DNA of 64,000 nt, taken from assembly GCA_031763025.1 (NCBI GenBank), contig JASSKH010000023.1, positions 1,302,001-1,366,000 on the forward strand. Reading direction: 5' to 3'. The position numbers and the translations under genes are program-made. Of this stretch, positions 43,971 through 62,803 are shown piece after piece. The notes beneath the pieces are model-generated. The model was given only the letters and a program-made list of their open reading frames with translations. It was not told the origin of the DNA and searched no databases. The DNA comes from Macrocystis pyrifera (taxonomy: Eukaryota > Sar > Phaeophyceae > Laminariales > Laminariaceae). How positions within the stretch are numbered: position 1 is the first letter of the stretch; every line of letters starts with the position of its first letter.

Positions 43971-44284
43971 GGCCGCACTCTCATGGTCTTTCCTGATCGC
44001 CCATAAGGTTCTGGTCGAAAAATATAATGATCTATTGGTATTCATTTCAGTGTTTTAAACGGTTCTTATGTTTACGCCTAGAGTAGTTTTTTTTTTTTGC
44101 CAAGTACCAAAGCATCCTGATTGGGTGCTCCCATAAGGCTCCCATAAGGTTTGGCCAATCAACAGCACTATTCGCGCGGCGAGATCAATATGCGCGGCGC
44201 GATTAGGCTGGCATGCTGCATGCTGCCGCCATCCTCTGCCTGTGAGCCTGAAACAAGGCGCGGGTACGATACAAACTCAGATGC

Positions 44285-44400
44285 TTGCAGCAACTCAAAG
44301 GTGAAGAGGCGCTGGGCAAGCTGGTGGTGGTGGAGGTGCATTGTGGGTATTCAGCTGGTGGTGCTGGTGGGGACACAAAACCTCGGCGTGACGGGATGAA
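44285..44400 (+). pseudogene. Tpn1 conserved coding segment (LQQ-K-G motif)
   Basis: MQQLKGEEALGKLVVVEVHC aligns with the LQQHKGTAGLRKLLVIELFD segment of Tpn2 (minus strand, 56963-57226) at the same distance from the end. Conservation is better at the amino-acid level than for the flanking DNA. Upstream residues are frame-shifted here. The function is unknown. Confidence 0.45.
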
Positions 44401-45777
44401 AACCTATATATACCAGGTAGTCACCAGGGAGCGCTTCCAGATTCCGTGTGCAAGGCCTGCACGGCAGAGGGGGGGGCTTCTATGTACGAAGGTGCGCGTG
44501 TAAGTTGTCGTGTTGTGTCACATGCTGCTTGTGTGCTCCCTGGAGATACGAGTAATCTACCATCTACGAGTGTCGCCTGTTGGTGCAGAAATTTTATACC
44601 TGGTACCTAAAAGAGTACTGCACCACAACAAAACTGCTGTACCGTAGGTACTATTAGTTCTGCTGCTGTTGTTTATTCGTACCTACCTGATGTCCGAGCA
44701 CCACAGGAGTCCCTCCCGCAGATCTCTAAGACTGCTTGTGCCGTACGGGCTTCACAAGGGCATCTGTGCTCGTACCACAACAGCAGCAGTTGTCTGAATT
44801 TTTCACGCCTCCCGTACTGACTGCACGTAGATACTAGTACCAGTGTGCGCAGGCGAGGTACTGCTGCTTTACCAGGTACTGACTGCTGTAAGAGAATGTT
44901 GCCTACGAGGGAGGCACCTGTTTGGTGCGTCACAACTTGCACGGCTGCCGTGTGCCGGTCGCAACCTGCGCAGCAATCCCTCCAGTAGATAGCTGTCGCC
45001 TGTGCCCCACGAGCTCTCTCTACACTTTACCTACCATTACACAAGGCAGCAGCCGTGGTCTGCATTGTTTTTCTATGGTTGGGAGATGCGTTTTTATGAA
45101 GAAAGCGCAGAGGAATTCGAGGCGGTAGAGCAGGCCCTCCGCCACAAGGTCAGGAGTCAAGACCATGTAGACCGAAAAAACGAGTGGCATCGCTTTTTTC
45201 ATACCTACCGAAGGTTAGCTTCAACGGTATACGTGAAATTCACGTCGGGTGCGAGACTTGATCCCATATAAGTTCGTCGAGTGCCGTGTTGCCAAGTGAA
45301 TATACGGCCGCAACGTGGCAAGGATTTTTATTGGGTTTCCCGTCAAGTAAGTTGTCACTGCTGTTCCGCACAACCTATGACGTTGCCACTGCTGTTTTGT
45401 CCTATTCTTGTTCGTTGCTACCTCTATCAGGATGATCCCGTCATCATGAGCATGATGAGATCTTCTTCCGAGATATAATAGCATCGGCGGCCCATTTGGT
45501 GGGCCAATCTGGTTGAAGACCCAGCAATCTTTGCTGAGGGACGAAGCGAGAAAGGCCGCACGTCAAGGCTGACTGACAGACTGATTCCGATGGCCTGCCA
45601 ATACAGTATCCAGGCAAGGGAGTATTTTGCGGCTGGCTTTCTAATGTATCAGCGTGCTTGCAGTACAAATGGTGCAGAAGAGTGTATATGCATCTGCTCG
45701 CATGCAGGGAGATTCTATGGCCACTCTTGATCACACCACGATCTTGATATTGCTGACGTAGGGTGTGGGGGGGTGTG

Positions 45778-45886
45778 CTATTACGGGGGACCATAGTAAA
45801 TAGGACCAAATATTGTGAGTAAAAACAGCGAAATATATAGGTTTTGTGTGTACGGTAGGTCCTATTTAATATGTTCCCTCGTAATA
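45778..45886. mobile_element. MITE D, copy inside Tpn1
   Basis: CTATTACGGGGGACCATAGT at the left and ATATGTTCCCTCGTAATA at the right, with ATATATAGGTTTTGTGTGTA inside. It is a complete 109-bp copy. Confidence 0.88.
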
Positions 45887-46296
45887 AATATCATGAATGG
45901 TCGTAGTCGTACGACCATAGACCCTCGCATCCCTATCATGCAGGGACGGAGCATAACTTTCAAGGGGGGGGTATGAGCAGCTGGTACACGGGGCCATGCA
46001 GGAATAGTTTGATCGAGTGCTGGATATGGTGCCACTGACTTAATCAGTGTTTTTGTTCCGACATTGACACGCAATATTTGCTATCGCCTGAATAGGTTGT
46101 ACTCACCCGTGTGAAATAATCGTCTTCGTACTGTTGGGCAACGCCAAGTATCCGAACTGGATTTCCACAATATCTGACTGTGACGTTGGGGCCCAATCCA
46201 GTTATCGTAGCAGGATGCCAAAGGCGCGGGAGGTATTGAAGAATTATGTCACGATAGAATCAATGCTACTACGCAGTCGTGGAGGTTGATGCATAC

Positions 46297-46580
46297 TGTG
46301 ATATGGGTGGAGTATTCATGGGAGTTCTGTCTCTCTCTCTCCTTTAGTCTCCCTTTCAGTGGTTGTTCTCAGCGAACACCCCCTCGTCGTAGTATTTGGG
46401 TCTTATTACGAGGTGTGTGGGGATCTATAGCCTCATTTCTTTCGTTACGAATAGCCGCATCTTCGATCACCTTTTTCCTGGCCGTTTGGGATGAACTTTG
46501 ACATCACCCTCCGACCATTTTGTGGTCTGCATATACGACTATTCAGGGTGGGCTAATGTGATATGGGTGGAGTATTCATG
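46297..46580. repeat. Direct repeat TGTGATATGGGTGGAGTATT, 260 bp apart
   Basis: TGTGATATGGGTGGAGTATT plus CATGGG occurs at 46297 and at 46557. The sequence after the second copy (AGTCTCACGAATACGAGAAT, GCGGATATTCCGTTAGTCGA twice in variant form) has the texture of an LTR. No partner was found, so a solo or truncated LTR is only a possibility. Confidence 0.5.
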
Positions 46581-47199
46581 GGCTATAGATATAGATAATA
46601 CGTTGCAGTCTTGTAGTCTCACGAATACGAGAATAATCCAAAGAATGGATTAACCCGGCGGATATTCCGTTAGTCGAGAGTATCGTTCTTTTAGGAATGT
46701 TCCCTAGGGCGGATAGCCCGTTAGACGAGAGTAATGTTCCTTGACGCAGATAGGACTACGAAGTGAGAAGTTCTTATACTAGCAGAAGAACGATCGGTAG
46801 CCATAGGAAAGTTCTGTAGGAGTACATCAGATAAGAGGAATTTAGGAGAGCTTGTGGCATGGGGTGGGACGAGTATATCTGGGCGTCGAGTCCCGCCCCC
46901 CTACCTCTCACTTCTCTAACAGAGCACCTCCTCAGCTCTCGCCATCAATAAGAAGATCTAAATCAGAAGAAGCGAAGCACTGCTTTCCAGCTGCCAGAAC
47001 CACCTGCGTCCCTTTACCACTACCCTTACCACTACCCTAGAGCGGTCTCCGCTTCACAATACCCCTCGAGCAGGGCTGTTTCGCTTCCGTTTTACTCGAG
47101 TCGCCTGCCGCCCTAGTAAAACATACCGGCCACCCCTCTAAGCCCAGCACCACTTTAATGACGCTCGTCGTACCGACGGAGCTCTGTACACTTTCCTAA

Positions 47200-48540
47200 T
47201 CCGTCATTGAGGTGTACGATGTCGTCGCCGATATGGAAGCCGATAAATATTGCGGTGGTCGTCTCGATAATGAGCAACAAGGCCGGCCACCTTGAGGCGT
47301 ACTGTTAAAACATCGAACGAAACCTATCCCGTTTTCTTCAGTTCTGGGTGCTCGAGCGAGGCCCTATACCGTTCTGGTAATGTATTTACTGTTTTTGGGC
47401 TAGCATGACACGTGCTACCCACATCCCGCGCCCCACGGGTGATGACGCAGGCATCAGCAGGGAAGCGCTAAGGTCCGTTCGAGAGAAATATGAGCCCACC
47501 AGGACAAGCTGCGCGCTCCCGTGGATAGTGGAGGTCCCGCAGGCGCCACGCGTGGTATCGATCGACGACGACCTTCAGTATAAACAGATAGTATGCAGAA
47601 CATCAAGCTGTTCGAGATTAGGGGACACAAGAGTATTGCTGTGCAGTCTTCAATGACATCGGTGTCTTGGCACGTTTGCCCGCACGTCGTATCAACTGGA
47701 TATTTTATAACAGTGGGGGCATAAAAATAACACCAGAATCAGTTGTTTGGATCACAAGGTGGGAGGGCACATTCACTGCTGTGTACCAGACGAGCGTTGT
47801 CGCGACTTAAGACAGTCGTCGGAGAAGAACGTCATTTGTAAATTCAGTCGGCAGTGCGAGTTGGATGCGCCTGAGACGAAATACATCAGGCGGGCTTCAA
47901 TTCTGGCCGGTCGCACAAGCACTAGTAGTGTGTGTCAAGTGCAGGCAATTGGATAGTACTACTCAGATCAAACTATATGATGTACGACGCGTGCAACGTG
48001 CACACTGACTCGTTATGTTTCAAGCAGATATCATAGGTTTTAGCCGACCTTATTTTACCCCTTTGAGAACAAGATGATGATGGTATTTTCTTGTGTTGCG
48101 CATTCTTCCAATCAACGTTTTCACGTGCCTTGGTTGTTTCGCACGAATTGTAGGTATACTCTCATGCAATTACACCCGACACTTTCAGTCGGCGCACAGC
48201 GTCCAAGAGCGGGGTGCGCTTGAGCTATATGCGAAGATAATTTTTTTGTTTGTATGCTTCGGGGGGCTGTGGGAGCAGTGATCAACGCAGACTGCTTCTG
48301 CGCGGTTCAACCAAATAGAATTCACGACTGCTACTATTGTCGAGGGGCAAACCATTAAGAATGTCAAAACATGATACCACATTATGGGACAAAGAAATTA
48401 CTTGATATTGTCTATATGTACCACGTACAAGAGAAGATGCGCATTTTTGTGTTTCTATCTTACATAGCCTTCCACCTGCACGTACTCGTTTAAGCTTCAT
48501 TCCACTCGGTCGGCAAAGCTGCTCACTCACGGTGAGTGTG
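47200..48540 (+). pseudogene. Tpn1 main conserved region, putative multi-exon transposon gene
   Basis: This region aligns with Tpn2 54570-53240 (minus) throughout. Shared peptides include YDVVADMEA (NDVVADMEA in Tpn2) and MSNKAGHLEAYC (LSNRAGHLEAYC). MTRATHIPRPTGDDAGI pairs with MTRPSHV..LTGGNAGI, and VEVPQAPRV with VEAPQVPLV. APETKYIRRASILA pairs with TPETKCVRRAAILA. A splice-donor-like CTCACG|GTGAGTG at 48525-48537 matches CTCACG|GTAAGTA in Tpn2. The frame is broken by several stops. No known transposase motif was found. Confidence 0.55.
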
Positions 48541-49091
48541 TTCGTGATGTTGCCACATCAAACATCGACTAATTTCAAATTCCAAGAAGAAAGGGAAGAA
48601 GACCTATCTATCTATACAGGCAGAGCGAAATAAGAAAGAGAGAGTGAACATCATATCTGCTGTATGCGAGTAAATGGCCCCCAAAGCAAGTACTGCAGCA
48701 GTAATATAAAGAAAAATGAGGCAAGGCTGCACATGCGGTATGTAGGCCTTGTGCGCTCGTAAGAAAAAAGGACGGAAACAAAACTAAATTCTGCTGCACT
48801 CAAAACACACCAGTACCACGGCAAATGCGAGCGCAACTCGAGATGGCTTGCAACGAGACAAGTCCCATGCGTTAGCTCAAGATGGCCCGCTTCTGCAGAT
48901 ACCGGGGTTGTGGAAATCGGTAACGTACAGCTCTCGCAATCGGTAATGCAAAAACACGACTATTTCATGCAGACACTCGTAAAATATTGGGAGCCTGTAC
49001 ACACCGCTGCGTTTTGTTTGGAATTATTTTTGGCGCTTTGCGCCAAATGAGTTTAATTGCCCATAGGAGGTAAGACCATGAAAGTGCGGCC

Positions 49092-51324: not shown

Positions 51325-51575
51325 CGTTAGGCCGAATCTTCTAAGACGAGCGTTTCGAGCCGTAAGTCGGACTGAAAAATCTGCGAAAACCATTTGTCTT
51401 AATCCACTTTTTGCGCCTTAGCGCGTCTCTGATTCGTCTTAGCGCGTCTTAGATTCGTCTCGGCACGTGTTAGATTCGTCTTGGCACGTCTTAGAGTCGT
51501 CTTAGCACGTCTTAGGTTCCTCTAGGCACGTCTAAGATTCGCAGATTCGTCTTGGCAGCACTAAGACAGACTTTA
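51325..51575. repeat. Repeat M copy 1 with CGTCTTAGATTCGTCTTGGC minisatellite
   Basis: It starts TAGGCCGAATCTTCTAAGAC. From about 51415 there are eight or more units of about 22 bases, (G/C)CGTCTTAGATTCGTCTTGGCA with substitutions. Copy 2 lies reversed at 57850-57680. The plus strand reads R-L-R-F-V type nonsense and is not coding. Confidence 0.75.
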
Positions 51576-52624: not shown

Positions 52625-52677
52625 GTATGTACGGCCGCACGCCCATGGTCTTACCTGGAGCCGGCAATTAAATTAAA

Positions 52678-52696
52678 TTGGCGCGAAGCGCCAAAA
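52678..52696. repeat. Subterminal hairpin of Tpn2
   Basis: TTGGCGCGAAGCGCCAA, a short-loop hairpin 46 bases inside the terminus. Tpn1 has TTGGCGCTTTGCGCCAA at 49030-49047, at the same distance from its end. The pairing arms are conserved while the loop differs, which suggests a functional structure. Confidence 0.75.
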
Positions 52697-53239
52697 ACGA
52701 GGGAGCAAAGCGACCAAAGATTGTTTTCGCCGATAGGCGATTTTTTTTTTTTTTCGTATTGCGGTGGGTACAGGCTTCGTCTGTCTGTAACTAAAAAAGT
52801 TGTGTTTTTGTAATACTCATTGCGAGAGCTGTACCTGACCGATTTCCACACACTCGATATCTACAGAAGCGGACGATCGTAGGCTAACGCGTGGAACTTG
52901 TTTCGCTGGGAAAATGGTCTTGAGTTGGTCACTGTCGGAGTGCTGCTATGGTCTTGGTGATGTTTTGGGGGCGGGGTTATTTCGTTTGTTTGTAGTTTGA
53001 CTTCGTTTTCTGTGAACGCACACGGCCTACGGCATGTATCGGACAAACTCGCTTTCTCTATCTATCTACTGGCGGTACTGGCCGACAAGACGAGTACTAC
53101 TGCTTTTGGGTCTGTTTACCTTGATATTCTCCATCTATTATATACACTTCTTTCTTCTCGCCTTTCCTCTGGATGTTTTCAATAGATCAGACGATGTTTT
53201 TCTGCAGCGACCGGTTCAGTTTGCCTATGATAATTCCAC

Positions 53240-54570
53240 GAGCACTTACTTACCGTGAGGAAGCAGCTAGCCTGGCCGGGTGAAGTCAATAATTATTAAG
53301 TACGTGCAGGTGGAAGAACGTGCCCATGGGAAGTCATCACCGGGTTTACAGGTGTGCGCATCGTATCTTCTCTTGCACCTAAATCGAGTAGGTTCTCAAA
53401 CAAAACGTATTTCCATTACGCTCGTGAGTCCTCGTTGGGGGCAACACGCGAAAACAGTCTTCGTCGCTCACTGCTCCTACAGCCCCCCGAAACATATAAA
53501 CCCAACAAGTTCTTCGCATATATCTCAAATGCATTCCGCTCTCAGAAGCTGTGCACCGCATGCAAGTGTCAGATGTAGTTTGCAAGGACAGCATCTACAT
53601 TTCTTGCGGAATAATCAAGACACGTGAACCATACATATGTTGATGAACAGTATGCCCAACACAAGAATACAACCATCCTCGCAACATCAACGAAGTAAAA
53701 ACTTCGCCTACAAGCGGTGGCAGAATCTATTCCTGAAGCATATCGAGACAAAAAAAACAGTGCACATGCTGCACGCATCGTGCACCACTTGGTTTAATCT
53801 GAACAGTATTATTCGGGCCGCCCGCGCTCCACGTGCGCCATCATCGTGGGCTAGAATTGCAGCCCGCCTGACACATTTCGTCTCGGGCGTATAAACTCGC
53901 ACTCCCCACTGAATTTCCAGTTTTCGTTTGTCTCTTTCGGATGCTTAAAAGTCCCGGGAAAGCTCGTCGGGTGCACAGCACTTGATACACCTTCCACCCT
54001 CGTGCTGCTGCCAAAAGTGATTCTGATGGTCTTTCTATGCTCCTACTGCCATCTAATACCCCCCGGCAAACCCCCGAAAATCTGGATGGCATTGACGATA
54101 GCACAGCTACCCTCTGCACCCCCCTGGTCTCGGGCAGTTTGATGTTCTGCATACTATCTGTTCATCCTGAAGGTCATCAGCGATTCAAGCAAAGCCTTTG
54201 CCACGAGTGGTACTTGCGGGGCCTCCACTACCGACGAAAGCGCGGCAGTTGGTCTTGATGGGTGCACCTTTTGCGCAAACAGCCCTTGGCGGTTCCCTGG
54301 TGTTAATGTGACCGTGATGCCTGCGTTACCACCCGTGAGACGTCAAACGTGGGAAGGACGTGTCATTTAGCCCAAATGCCGCAAGAAAATTACGGGAATT
54401 GTACAGGCCCTCACGCGAGCATCTGAAACTTTAAAACACGAAAACGGGCTGGGTTTCACTTGCTGTTTGAACAGTACGCCTCGAGGTGGCCGGCCCTGTT
54501 GCTCAAACTGGGGACAACGACGTTCTTTACCGCTTCCATATCCGCGACGACATCGTTCTCCTTCAGTTTC
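53240..54570 (-). pseudogene. Tpn2 main conserved region, putative multi-exon transposon gene
   Basis: Minus-strand counterpart of Tpn1 47200-48540. Readable pieces include ENDVVADMEAVKNVVVPSLS, NRAGHLEAYCSNSK (stop at 54456), then TAALSSVVEAPQVPLVAKAL. A frame from 54152 starts MQNIKLPETRGVQRVAVLSS, and TPETKCVRRAAILAHDDGAR follows near 53890. A donor-like CTCACG|GTAAGTAAG lies at 53253. Several frames are needed, so this copy is decayed or heavily spliced. A 37-base candidate intron, GTGAAACCC...TTTCAG, sits at about 54424-54460. I recognise no RNase H-fold or zinc-finger motif. Confidence 0.5.
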
Positions 54571-55213
54571 GCACCAGTGCAGCTACCCTCCGGCACGTGT
54601 GAACATAGCGACACCCGTCCCGTTCCAGTGTTATGTCTACATCGTCTTGGCGCCCGCCCTACTGAAGGAGGGGCTGTTTCACTACCGCGAAGGTTTATGG
54701 CAAAGGGTCGCCTTCGCGAAGTCTTCTGCACGGAATTTTGAAAAATAGTTATTCGCCAATCCTAAAACATGCAAACTACTGCCGGCGCCGTGGCAAAGTA
54801 GGATACTGAATCGCATGGAAATCTCCAGGCGCATCCAGGCGCATGCACACTCCGGCCGACGGTGGTGGCAGGGGAAACAAGAGTCACGGTACTTATAACA
54901 CGGCACTCAGTACAACAAAAACTACACCCATATCGCCGGTACTGCTGATTCATAAACGGCACGACCTGCCGTACCCTACCTACTGCTTTGGCACTGCACC
55001 AAAAGGCACAACGGTAGGCTTATAGTTCACAGAGATGGTGTGCAGCGTCAGTCACCACGAACAAGTAGGTAGAGGTTGGGGTAAAATAAACGGCTAATTT
55101 ACCCTCAAAGCTTGGTACAAGTGCGCAAAAACGGCGACGAAAAGAAGTACCGGTGACTACTACTTAGTCCCAGTGCTGCTCACCTGAATCGAGATTTCCT
55201 CCCTACCCTCTCC

Positions 55214-55468
55214 ATGGAAAACCCCGGCGTTCGCGTTAACACCAATGGGCCCTTGCTCTCTGTCGCCGTTCGGGATTCACCCATCGTGCACGCCTGCCCC
55301 CCCCCCCCCTCGCCCCACCTCCACACCTGCGACGACTCGTGTGGGTTCAGCGCTGAGAGCTACGGCACCGTGGGGTGTTTCACCCAGGAAGTGAATCCGG
55401 CGGCGAGGCGAGTTCCCTCTGCCCCATCTCCGTCGCTCGTAGCTCACTCGCCGCGCCGGGCGGTGTAG
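55214..55468 (+). CDS. Unrecognised 84-codon frame inside Tpn2
   Basis: MENPGVRVNTNGPLLSVAVR, then PIVHACPPPPSPHLHTCDDS and GFSAESYGTVGCFTQEV. It is a Pro/Cys/Ser-rich short frame on the strand opposite to the conserved Tpn2 region. GGATTGAGCGTACAACCCTC is repeated just downstream (55555-55590). A part of a captured gene or chance. Confidence 0.25.
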   Translation: MENPGVRVNTNGPLLSVAVRDSPIVHACPPPPSPHLHTCDDSCGFSAESYGTVGCFTQEVNPAARRVPSAPSPSLVAHSPRRAV

Positions 55469-56962
55469 TGTCCTTTCCTGTCCGGCAAGACGAGCACTTT
55501 CGCAGTTGGCGTTTTCACCACGGCGTGCGGTTCCGGACTTGGGTCTTGCCATGGGGTTGAGCGTACAACCCTCGGGATTGAGCGTACAACCCTCACCACC
55601 CTCACCCGGCGGGCCTGTCCTTGCGCCGACTCTCATGCAGGACTATTGCTCACTACTGGTTAGTTTGTAGTCTTCCGTCAGCGGATTGACTCCCTCAGCA
55701 AGCAACGCCAGTGTTGTTCCTCCTGCTCTCTTTCCGCCGTCTCCGCCGCTGCAAGGACATCGCTTTCGGCTGCGTGCAAGACAATCGCACGACAAACACA
55801 ACGTGTACGCCGCAAGCGTGCGACACCACTTTAGCATATCTTATTTTCTTATTTCGGGTCAGGCTCTATTTCTTTTCATGTGGGACGGGGTGTGTCCTAC
55901 TCAACTTCCAGTGTAAATAATGCCACATCCTTATCTTTGTCAAAAACTCGAGCCTGAAGCTATAAACTTCTGTCGCGTACTGTAGTTGTTTTTTCTGGTG
56001 TCAGCATACCGCCTGGTGTTGTACTCTTTCTAGAGTGAAAGAGAGGCGCGAATGCCAAGAGAAAAACGAACAACAGTTGTTACATCGTCAGTGCCAGCAG
56101 TACCGCCAGTACCACCACCCCTCCCCATAGCTCTCAACATGATTTCAAACGCCACTCATCGTTCGACTAATCGTACCAAAACGCACAGCGCGAAAATGGT
56201 ACCGATCACTGCTCCTGTCAGTGCTGCTGCTGTAGGTACATATACGACCAGTGTGGTGCCCAATAACTACGATATGTGTTGGATGGACTGCTGCGCAAGT
56301 CTAAACCGGTGCACAGCCGGGAGCGTTTAGCGATGAGGCCAAGAGGTGCCTCGCAGGCAGTTCTTCTCACGCCTATTAATGCTACTGCTGTAGTATGACA
56401 GGGCTGTAACTCTACATCCCACTCTGGATGGAAATATAAGGAATTTTTCGTACCCATATCAATGTGTACACGCTACCTATATTATCCGCTCAGAACGGTA
56501 CCGGGTGACAAATTCGAGCTGTACATGAGTACCAGGCATGGCTACAACAACATGCAGCTGCTGCTGCTGTGCGGGAAGGTGCGAGTACAGACAAATAGGC
56601 GAAGCTTGTAGGGTGCAGGCAATAGGGGTCAATCCTGCCCAAGTAGTAGCGCACCAAGAGGTAGAGTCCGTACAGCAGTACCAGGTACCTACTGCTCTAC
56701 CTGGTACCTGGTAGGTCGGAGGAAACCTCTACAGCAGCAGTGCTCGACGTACATACTCTGCATTTATCGCCACTCTTGTACAACAAGACGACACTACAGT
56801 AACAGGCACCTGGTGTATAGACGTCTCCTCCGTTGTATCGGTCCCGGAGGCAAGCTGATGGCGCTCCATTGGAGCAGTCTCTCCCGCCCGACGACCAAGT
56901 TCCGCCTGCCTGCCGTACGTAGCAGGCTCTCATACTGCGACCGCCAAGGGCCATCTCTATCG

Positions 56963-57226
56963 TCATCTCAGCTGATTACCCATCCTGGGAAGATCAAACA
57001 ACTCAATCACCAGTAGCTTTCTCAGCCCTGCTGTACCTTTGTGCTGCTGCAAGCCGGCAATTCGGTTCCTACATCCCTCTGGCCGCGTTAGAGCACTACA
57101 GCTGAGACGGTCGTCCTCTCGAGTTGACCACTTTTGGAATAAATGCGGTGCAAACAGAGCGTGGACGACGGACGGGATGATGGGTTCCACCGCCACATAC
57201 TCCCCGTAATGCTCTCCATTGGTCAC
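56963..57226 (-). CDS. Tpn2 first conserved reading frame (unknown function)
   Basis: The frame reads MTNGEHYGEYVAVEPIIPSV, then VHALFAPHLFQKWSTREDDR and LQQHKGTAGLRKLLVIELFD, ending LPRMGNQLR. The start codon is 144 bases inside the transposon end. The part from LQQ to IEL matches Tpn1 at the same place in another broken frame. GGATGG|GTAATC near the end could be a donor. At 87 residues it is too short for a transposase catalytic domain. A DNA-binding first exon is possible but not shown. Confidence 0.45.
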   Translation of the reverse strand: MTNGEHYGEYVAVEPIIPSVVHALFAPHLFQKWSTREDDRLSCSALTRPEGCRNRIAGLQQHKGTAGLRKLLVIELFDLPRMGNQLR

Positions 57227-57377
57227 ATCCCTCCGGTACTATGGGGTGTACTATGGGAACACCCTCAACAGGCGTTTTTTTGTATTTCTGTTATTGGTCA
57301 AGAAAACAAAAATTTAACGCTGATTGGTCTGTACTATGGGGCTCCAGGTAAGACCATGGGCGTGCCGCCGTATGTAC

Positions 57378-57679: not shown

Positions 57680-57850
57680 ACCCCCTAAGACGCCTCGACC
57701 GGCGCCTGGTGCGCTCTACGACGAATCTAAACGTGACAAGACGAATCTAAGACGTGCCAAGACGCGATATAGCGAGTAAGACGTGCCTCTCTCTGAGAAA
57801 CGGAGTAAGACGAATTTTAAGACACATCTTAGAAGATTGGGCCTAATATC
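57680..57850. repeat. Repeat M copy 2 (reverse)
   Basis: On the minus strand it begins TAGGCCCAATCTTCTAAGAT and has CGTCTTAC/CGTCTTGGCACGTCTTAG units like 51325-51575. The unit number is lower. Confidence 0.65.
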
Positions 57851-57877
57851 TATTCATCTTGTAGAAAACCCAGGGTA

Positions 57878-58189
57878 TGCCGTCGGTAGAAAAGCTGAGC
57901 CATTTCGGTCACACTTGCAACAACTACAGAGGGATTTCGCTTGTTGCCCACGCAGGCAAACTTTTGTTGAAAATCGTCGCGTCTCGCCTCAGCAACTACT
58001 ACTGCGAAACAGAGGGATTACTCCCGGAGGAACAATCAATGCGGATTCCGCCCGCACGATCAACGATTAATATGTTGTCCGTCGTGCGCCGGTTTCAAGA
58101 CCTCGGACGACAGGAGGAAATCCCCCCGTACGTGTGCTCTATCGATCAGCAAAAAGCGTACGACTCTGTGAACCGAGAGCTGCTAGCAG
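57878..58189 (+). pseudogene. LINE reverse transcriptase, N-terminal part
   Basis: HTCNNYRGISLVAHAGKLLL, KIVASRLSNYYCETEGLLPE, then EQSMRIPPARSTINMLSVVR and YVCSIDQQKAYDSVNRELL. These are RT motifs 1-3 of non-LTR elements: NYRGIS, the E-Q-x-G-F-R-x-x-R-S box in mutated form, and the D-x-x-K-A-Y-D-S-V catalytic Asp box. The endonuclease domain is absent upstream. The frame is intact for about 104 residues, then stops where a foldback element has inserted. Confidence 0.92.
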
Positions 58190-58617
58190 CTGTGTATGTG
58201 TTCTTCACATTAAACCGTTCTTTCTACCCGCCGGCATCGAGCACACCCAGTGTCCGTGCCGATTCCTCAAACCTAGAGAGATAAACGTTCTGTGGTCACA
58301 CAACTACTCCACATACTACATTGTTACAGTTTGCAGTAAGCACAGTAAACGATGCAATGCCGTGTCATCATATCAGGGTACTGGATACCAGGGAACTGGA
58401 ACTGGATGTCACAGGCACAACATACATATTCTCTGAAAGAGAGAATACGAAAAGAAATAACGGAAAGAGTAAAACAAAAACAAAGAACCGAAAAAAATGG
58501 AAAGATAAAAAAGAAGAAAAAATACAACACTGAACAAAAATCAATAATTGTCGTGCCTACTCGCAGGGGATGTGGCAGGCATTTGAAAGAAGCGTGCTAA
58601 AAAAAAAAAAAAAAAAA
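58190..58617 (+). mobile_element. Foldback element A half copy inserted in the LINE
   Basis: GTGTTCTTCACATTAAACCG, GTGTCCGTGCCGATTCCTCA, TGCAATGCCGTGTCATCATA, ACAGGCACAACATACATATT and the end GGGGATGTGGCAGGCATTTG, followed by an A run. It separates the LINE RT motifs A and B. Confidence 0.85.
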
Positions 58618-62119: not shown

Positions 62120-62490
62120 TGTCATGGGCATGTCGTGGCATTGCCATGGTACCGCCCATGGCATACCATGGCATCACCACGGCATCCCATGGTGTGGCAT
62201 AAGATTCCATGGCACGCCGTGGGGGTTGCCATGACATGCCATGGGTAGTACCATGGCAACCCCCGCGGCTACCGCCACGGCACTCCATGGCAATCCCACG
62301 GCATGTCATGGCAACCCCCACGGCACCCCAATGTCCACGGCACCTAGGTTAGGGTTGGGGTTAGGGTTAGGGATAGGGTTAGGGTTAGGGTCCCATGGTA
62401 TGCCGTGGAGGCCCGTGGAAGGTTTCGTGGTATGCCGTGGAAGATGCCGTGGAAGGTTTTGCCGCAGGTGGTGCCACGGCATGCCCCGGC
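62120..62490. repeat. CCATGGCA/TGCCGTGG array around a telomere-like tract
   Basis: More than twenty CCATGG, CCACGGCA or GCCGTGG motifs. Left of 62346 they mostly read CACGGCA/CATGGCA, right of 62390 they read GGTATGCCGTGG/CCGTGGAAGG, so the array is largely inverted about the tract. All frames over it are low-complexity. Confidence 0.8.
62346..62390 (+). repeat. Interstitial TTAGGG tract
   Basis: AGGTTAGGGTTGGGGTTAGG and GTTAGGGATAGGGTTAGGGT: about seven TTAGGG-type units, two of them variant. TTAGGG is the telomere repeat of many eukaryotic groups. The tract lies within the window and not at a sequence end, so it is interstitial. Confidence 0.85.
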
Positions 62491-62803
62491 ATGTTGCGAA
62501 AAAAGACAATAATGTACATACCTCGTTCAAAGGGAGAGCGATGGCACCAGGGAGCAGCAGCAGCCGCAACGGCAACAGCAGCCTCAGCAGCCATGTCTGC
62601 AACAGCAGCAGCAGGACCAAGTGGGTCCGCTAAGCGCTTGCGACGATCGCCCCGAAGAACAATAGCAACAGCAGGGCCAAGTGGGTCTGCGAGGCGCTCT
62701 CCGCAGAAGCGGTTGTGGCGGGTACCGCTAGGTAGATACACACCACCTTGTATAGCGTAGGGTACCTACGCTCGGTCTGGAGCCACCGGTCCAAAACATC
62801 TGT
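62491..62803. other. CAG-rich spacer
   Basis: AGCAGCAGCAGCCGCAACGG and a duplicated GGACCAAGTGGGTCCGC / GGGCCAAGTGGGTCTGC (about 62612 and 62672), 60 bases apart. Ala-rich frames on both strands are artefacts. Confidence 0.5.

What the first reader, a model, noticed from the sequence alone, without database searches (positions are those of the whole stretch)
52633..57369. Unassigned 4.7-kb DNA transposon with 30-bp TIRs and a perfect 8-bp target duplication
Seen: 29/30 matching terminal inverted repeats beginning GGC(C/G)GCACGCCCATGG, flanked by GTATGTAC on both sides. Known: 8-bp duplications are produced by hAT, P, Merlin and a few rarer superfamilies, and the nTnnnnAn pattern is typical of hAT. 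Inference: the TIR start and the absence of any transposase motif I can recognise do not fit hAT neatly, so this may be a new family, possibly with a spliced transposase gene.
Basis: partly seen in the sequence, partly recalled or inferred. Interest (0 to 1): 0.85.

Follow-up and report, generated by a model that had tools for sequence, protein, structure and literature searches.

The report
Gene-less kelp DNA transposon, 4.7 kb
It is a real, once-mobile DNA transposon found in many copies in what appears to be the giant kelp genome, but no gene can be found in it, so it was probably moved by a transposase made elsewhere; its superfamily is still unassigned.

Summary
Window 52633-57369 is 4,737 bp with 29/30 terminal inverted repeats and GTATGTAC on both sides. 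The window lies in a 537-Mb, 223-contig assembly whose statistics match the published Macrocystis pyrifera genome. The TIR occurs 363 times there (reversed control 0). Among the 100 places listed, all 25 inward pairs join one GGCC and one GGCG end; 14 are 4.2-5.3 kb. Of 23 distinct copies with both flanks read, 10 carry an exact 8-bp duplication, 4 carry 7 of 8, and 9 carry none.

I find no gene in it. The longest open stretch of the 12-copy majority sequence is shuffle-like, six-frame Pfam finds nothing credible, and a roughly 70%-identical sister family, also in this window (43971-49091), shows no codon pattern against it. Best reading: a long non-autonomous TIR transposon moved in trans. 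The superfamily stays open. GG ends plus 8-bp duplications look like Merlin, but no Merlin domain was found in the genome. hAT domains are abundant, but none of those listed lies within 12 kb inward of a listed TIR, and the hAT target motif is absent. The KDZ test was uninformative and the Mutator search did not complete. The "spliced transposase gene" idea is not supported.

The parts
52625..52632 (+). left copy of the 8-bp target-site duplication, GTATGTAC
   Evidence: sequence
52633..52662 (+). left terminal inverted repeat (GGCC type)
   Evidence: 30-mer found 363 times genome-wide with up to 2 mismatches, both end types together
52633..57369 (+). whole element, 4,737 bp, no gene detected
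   Evidence: 12 copies with both TIRs; open stretches like shuffles; six-frame Pfam
53450..54585 (+). approximate stretch (majority-sequence positions 818-1953) that is 69.5% identical to the sister family, without codon phase
   Evidence: window position is my conversion and may be off by some tens of bases because of indels
57340..57369 (-). right terminal inverted repeat (GGCG type)
57370..57377 (+). right copy of the 8-bp target-site duplication, GTATGTAC
   Evidence: sequence
43971..49091 (-). sister-family element, 5,121 bp, 24-nt TIRs at 92% (GGCCGCACTTTC left / GGCCGCACTCTC right), no evident target duplication here
   Evidence: exact sister TIRs listed at 100 places

Best explanation
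The finding is one copy of a multi-copy, non-autonomous class II (TIR) DNA transposon. Shown: fixed ends, copies at many unrelated sites, 8-bp duplications at many of them, no detectable coding sequence, and a diverged sister family with the same end architecture. Inferred: a transposase encoded elsewhere binds the roughly 30-bp ends, excises the element and joins it to staggered cuts 8 bp apart. The amplification looks like a burst that left copies about 2% from their common sequence. The superfamily of that transposase is not settled. My odds: KDZ (Zisupton-like) 0.35, an atypical hAT 0.3, Merlin 0.1, another or undescribed superfamily 0.25. The KDZ lean rests on KDZ being the abundant 8-bp-duplication group reported for the brown alga Ectocarpus, not on a test here.
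For: TIR 363 times, control 0. 25 of 25 inward pairs among the listed places are one left plus one right end; 14 are 4.2-5.3 kb, 3 about 10.95 kb, 7 are 18.2-18.4 kb, 1 is 1,158 bp. The 10.95- and 18.3-kb forms fit the 4.7-kb element with one or two LTR-type insertions (direct repeats of 256 and 480 bp; element matches interrupted at 1746-1750 and 988-994). Exact 8-bp duplications in 10 of 23 distinct copies, 7 of 8 in 4, none in 9. 1.6-3.7% substitutions from the majority, 755 singleton against 140 shared variants, i.e. a star-like burst. No coding. Sister family: 69.5% over 1,176 columns, mismatches by phase 95/85/81, 5 of 29 gaps a multiple of three; no local phase excess (178 and 307 of 500 shuffles reach the observed value); two of five sister copies usable for the test have exact 8-bp duplications.
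Against: No autonomous partner with these ends was found, so movement in trans is inferred. 9 of 23 copies show no duplication. Uniform phase among the young copies says little, since copies decay neutrally whether or not the ancestor coded; the sister comparison is the stronger test but covers only the stretches that still align. Pfam cannot show a gene of an undescribed family.
Confidence: 0.88

Rival explanations
1. The element is autonomous and carries a multi-exon transposase gene (Zisupton genes can have 18-31 exons).
For: 4.7 kb is long for a gene-less element; Zisupton genes of many exons are reported (passages of PMC9297572).
Against: No Pfam domain, KDZ included, in any of six frames although a decayed reverse transcriptase next door is detected; open stretches like shuffles; no codon phase against the sister family.
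Confidence: 0.05
2. A hAT element (non-autonomous), mobilised by one of the genome's hAT transposases.
For: 8-bp duplications; hAT dimerisation domain PF05699 is abundant in the genome (150 matches scored of 317 candidates, all over the cut-off).
Against: nTnnnnAn in 2 of 10 exact duplications; ends start GGCCG, not the YARNG-type hAT start (recalled, no call). By coordinates compared by eye, none of the 150 listed hAT matches lies within 12 kb inward of any of the 100 + 100 listed TIR places; those lists are partial.
Confidence: 0.3
3. A Merlin-type element.
For: Merlin has conserved 5'-GG ends, TIRs of 24-462 bp and 8- or 9-bp duplications (passages of PMC8101967); all three are met here.
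Against: No DDE_Tnp_IS1595 (PF12762) match in the genome, though the control rang in only 1 of 14 genomes (Haloferax volcanii) and the search reads exon by exon.
Confidence: 0.1
4. Chance inverted repeat or assembly artefact.
For: None found.
Against: 363 genome-wide TIR matches with 0 in the reversed control; 12 copies with both ends; duplications at unrelated sites.
Confidence: 0.01

Closest known systems
KDZ (Kyakuja-Dileera-Zisupton) giant and non-autonomous elements of the brown alga Ectocarpus
   Same: Brown alga; Zisupton and Dileera make 8-bp duplications (PMC12730594 passages). KDZ is 1.80% of the Ectocarpus genome and several giant families there carry no transposase homologue (PMC12477816 passages).
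   Different: No KDZ domain in the element or by six-frame search of the genome (where the control also rang nowhere, so uninformative). Kyakuja has CA..TG ends without TIRs and 7-bp duplications. The Ectocarpus end sequences were not seen.
Merlin / IS1595-type DNA transposons
   Same: GG ends, TIR of at least 24 bp, 8-bp duplications.
   Different: No transposase in the element; no PF12762 match in this genome.
hAT non-autonomous elements
   Same: 8-bp duplications, short TIRs; hAT domains abundant in the genome.
   Different: Different terminal bases (recalled rule), no nTnnnnAn preference (2 of 10), no hAT domain inside.
MITEs
   Same: Non-coding, TIRs, many similar copies.
   Different: About 4.7 kb rather than a few hundred bp (size rule recalled); one 1,158-bp internally deleted form was seen.

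Membership tests
class II TIR DNA transposon (non-autonomous) | terminal inverted repeats at fixed ends in many copies | tested here: met
class II TIR DNA transposon (non-autonomous) | target-site duplication of fixed length | tested here: met
   8 bp: exact in 10 of 23, 7 of 8 in 4, none in 9
class II TIR DNA transposon (non-autonomous) | no transposase coding capacity | tested here: met
   limited to Pfam families and open-frame statistics
class II TIR DNA transposon (non-autonomous) | autonomous partner with the same ends | tested here: inconclusive
hAT | 8-bp duplication with nTnnnnAn | tested here: not met
   length met; motif in 2 of 10
hAT | hAT transposase with C-terminal dimerisation domain in the element | tested here: not met
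   in the genome abundant
Merlin | 5'-GG ends, TIR 24-462 bp, 8-9 bp duplication | tested here: met
   definition from PMC8101967 passages
Merlin | IS1595-type DDE domain | tested here: not met
   not in element, no match in genome (control rang in 1 of 14)
KDZ | 8-bp duplication (Zisupton, Dileera) | tested here: met
   definition from PMC12730594 passages
KDZ | KDZ transposase domain | tested here: inconclusive
   none in element; genome search found 0 but its control rang nowhere
Mutator-like | MULE transposase in the genome or element | tested here: inconclusive
   none in the element; genome search with PF10551 did not complete
P, Novosib | their transposases in the genome | not tested
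   no genome search made; Pfam scan of the element negative

The most novel reading that the evidence does not exclude
An old lineage of 4-6 kb gene-less transposons, split into at least two families about 30% apart that both keep long shared non-coding blocks and 8-bp duplications, moved by a transposase superfamily not yet described in brown algae. The conserved non-coding interior would then be something the transposition or host process needs, not just stuffing.
Probability: 0.12. Interest if true: 0.7.

Novelty: new member of a known kind. Interest (0 to 1): 0.35.

Why it matters
It adds a defined, dated, multi-copy family with exact ends and duplications to the repeat map of a brown alga, a group whose DNA transposons are often unclassified (51 'DNA/Unknown' families in Ectocarpus, PMC12477816 passage). 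Its open point is testable: which 8-bp-duplication transposase uses GGCCGCAC ends. The two families with long shared non-coding interiors are a good test of whether such interiors are under constraint or are just what is left of a lost gene-bearing ancestor.

Tried and rejected
Genes inside the element: open stretches, ten ORFs against Pfam, six frames with stops as X, codon phase among copies (weak test) and between families: all negative. The two matches below cut-off, Viral_DNA_bp E 0.53 in the element and YHS E 0.0076 in a sister stretch, I take as chance.

Longer autonomous forms: the 10.95- and 18.3-kb pairs looked promising but fit the 4.7-kb element with nested LTR-type insertions. Copy L079 departs from the family at base 100, but the sequence that follows contains reverse-transcriptase/integrase-like frames (my reading of the ORFs) and no second TIR in the 5.3 kb read. 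Three 5.65-kb pairs with CTCTC at both ends proved 86% identical to the window's sister element in the 1.2 kb read, again without a credible domain. L021/L023 leave the family at base 623 and show no second TIR in 10 kb; segmental duplicates by shared flank.

Genome searches: KDZ PF18758 0 matches, control nowhere; Merlin PF12762 0; hAT PF05699 abundant. No Rfam family in the window and no match among phages. Paper searches listed nothing that names this element; they see open-licence PMC full text only.

The count of 470 is not a sister count: with 2 mismatches that pattern also accepts the GGCC ends of the first family. Only the 100 listed exact places are surely sister ends. In one search the pair L103/L104 was dropped because my stretch stopped short of the element. 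In the 23-copy count L024 was dropped as a duplicate of L022, three C220 copies with identical flanks were counted once, and four further pairs were unusable (three left ends not found in the stretch fetched, one at its very edge).

Full report
Observation. The TIR core is not expected by chance in the window (0 in 100 shuffles).

Source. The window is C204:1302001-1366000 of an unnamed assembly of 537,376,219 bp in 223 contigs. Contig C196 is 13,669,674 bp long, which is the published N50 of the giant kelp Macrocystis pyrifera genome; that paper gives 537 Mb and 35 scaffolds plus 188 contigs (PMC10498591, passages).

Family. The first 130 bp gave 40 scored matches of 424 candidates, the last 130 bp 41 matches of 207 candidates (40 scored). 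The 30-bp TIR occurs 363 times, reversed control 0. Of the 100 places listed (60 GGCC, 40 GGCG), 25 inward pairs lie within 25 kb. All join unlike ends: 14 are 4.2-5.3 kb, 3 about 10.95 kb, 7 about 18.3 kb, 1 is 1,158 bp. The two long classes fit the element plus nested LTR-type insertions, and some are passive duplicates of one insertion (shared flanks). Twelve copies with both ends are 93.9-99.1% identical to each other and 1.6-3.7% from their majority; 755 variants are singletons and 140 shared, a star-like burst.

Target duplication. Of 23 distinct copies with both flanks read, 10 have exact 8-bp duplications, 4 match at 7 of 8, 9 do not. Two of the nine (L029, L094/L095) match if shifted by one base. 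In element orientation position 4 is T in 8 of 10 exact duplications (binomial 0.0004 at p=0.25, 0.003 at p=0.33); I chose this position after looking, so it is a lead. nTnnnnAn holds in 2 of 10.

No gene found; the longest stop-free stretch of the majority sequence is 143 codons; shuffles average 144.7 and 96 of 200 reach 143; ten ORFs, no Pfam family up to E 1; six frames with stops as X, only Viral_DNA_bp at E 0.53 (7.8 bits, cut-off 25). The method works on decayed DNA: the reverse transcriptase beside the element rings at 5.2e-12.

Sister family. The window holds a second, older relative at 43971-49091 on the minus strand. It aligns in blocks, the longest 69.5% over 1,176 columns. Mismatches fall evenly over the three phases (95, 85, 81), 5 of 29 gaps are multiples of three, and no local window shows excess phase. 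Six-frame Pfam of 44101-49067 is empty. Exact sister TIRs are listed at 100 places, making 17 inward pairs: 13 of 4.3-5.1 kb and one of 9.35 kb with unlike ends, three of 5.65 kb with like ends. Two of five copies usable for the test have exact 8-bp duplications; the window's own sister copy has none evident. So two gene-less families with the same architecture exist side by side.

Which transposase? Merlin fits the ends best on paper (PMC8101967 passages), but PF12762 finds nothing in the genome. KDZ makes 8-bp duplications (PMC12730594 passages) and is prominent in Ectocarpus, where entirely non-autonomous giant families are reported (PMC12477816 passages). The Pfam KDZ model found nothing, but its control also rang nowhere, and Zisupton genes can have 18-31 exons (PMC9297572 passages), so this is no evidence of absence. 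hAT domains are plentiful and one lies in the window at 62684-62803, but none of the 150 listed is within 12 kb inward of a listed TIR (compared by eye). PF10551 (Mutator) did not complete. I lean slightly to KDZ on ecology of the group, not on a direct test.

Verdict. A real, well-bounded, long non-autonomous DNA transposon family, ordinary in kind, with its superfamily open.

Noticed in passing
window 43971-49091 (- strand): A second, diverged element of the same architecture (sister family), about 70% identical in blocks and likewise without detectable genes.
   Followed up: yes
L035 (G000:C212, element bases 1-521): A 520-bp insertion consisting only of the left end, with an exact 8-bp duplication (AGCAACTG) and no right TIR: one-ended insertion, or a deletion ending exactly at the element's edge.
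   Followed up: partly
G000:C200:13853319-13853384 (L083) and G000:C191:13760937-13760988 (L100): In each family one case of two elements head to tail with exactly 6 bp between left and right end. The 8 bases before the second element (2 of them from the first element's end) match its far flank at 7 of 8 and 6 of 8. Unexplained; perhaps insertion overlapping an existing end.
   Followed up: partly
L044 (G000:C198:6066621-6066700): Left TIR present twice, 50 bp apart, with the 8-bp duplication outside the outer one.
   Followed up: no
L062-L065, L067, L068, L071-L074: 10 of the 20 stretches lie on ten different small contigs but share one insertion flank: a single insertion multiplied with a larger repeat (or redundant contigs).
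   Followed up: no
window 62684-62803 (- strand): hAT transposase C-terminal fragment (PF05699, 8e-07).
   Followed up: partly
window 57877-58284 (+ strand): Decayed reverse transcriptase fragment (PF00078) just right of the element.
   Followed up: partly
window 51417-51541 and 57720-57764: Tandem repeats of a similar 21-bp unit on both sides of the element in opposite orientation (orientation and similarity).
   Followed up: no
window 62347-62391: 7.5 copies of GGTTAG, a telomere-like hexamer inside the contig.
   Followed up: no
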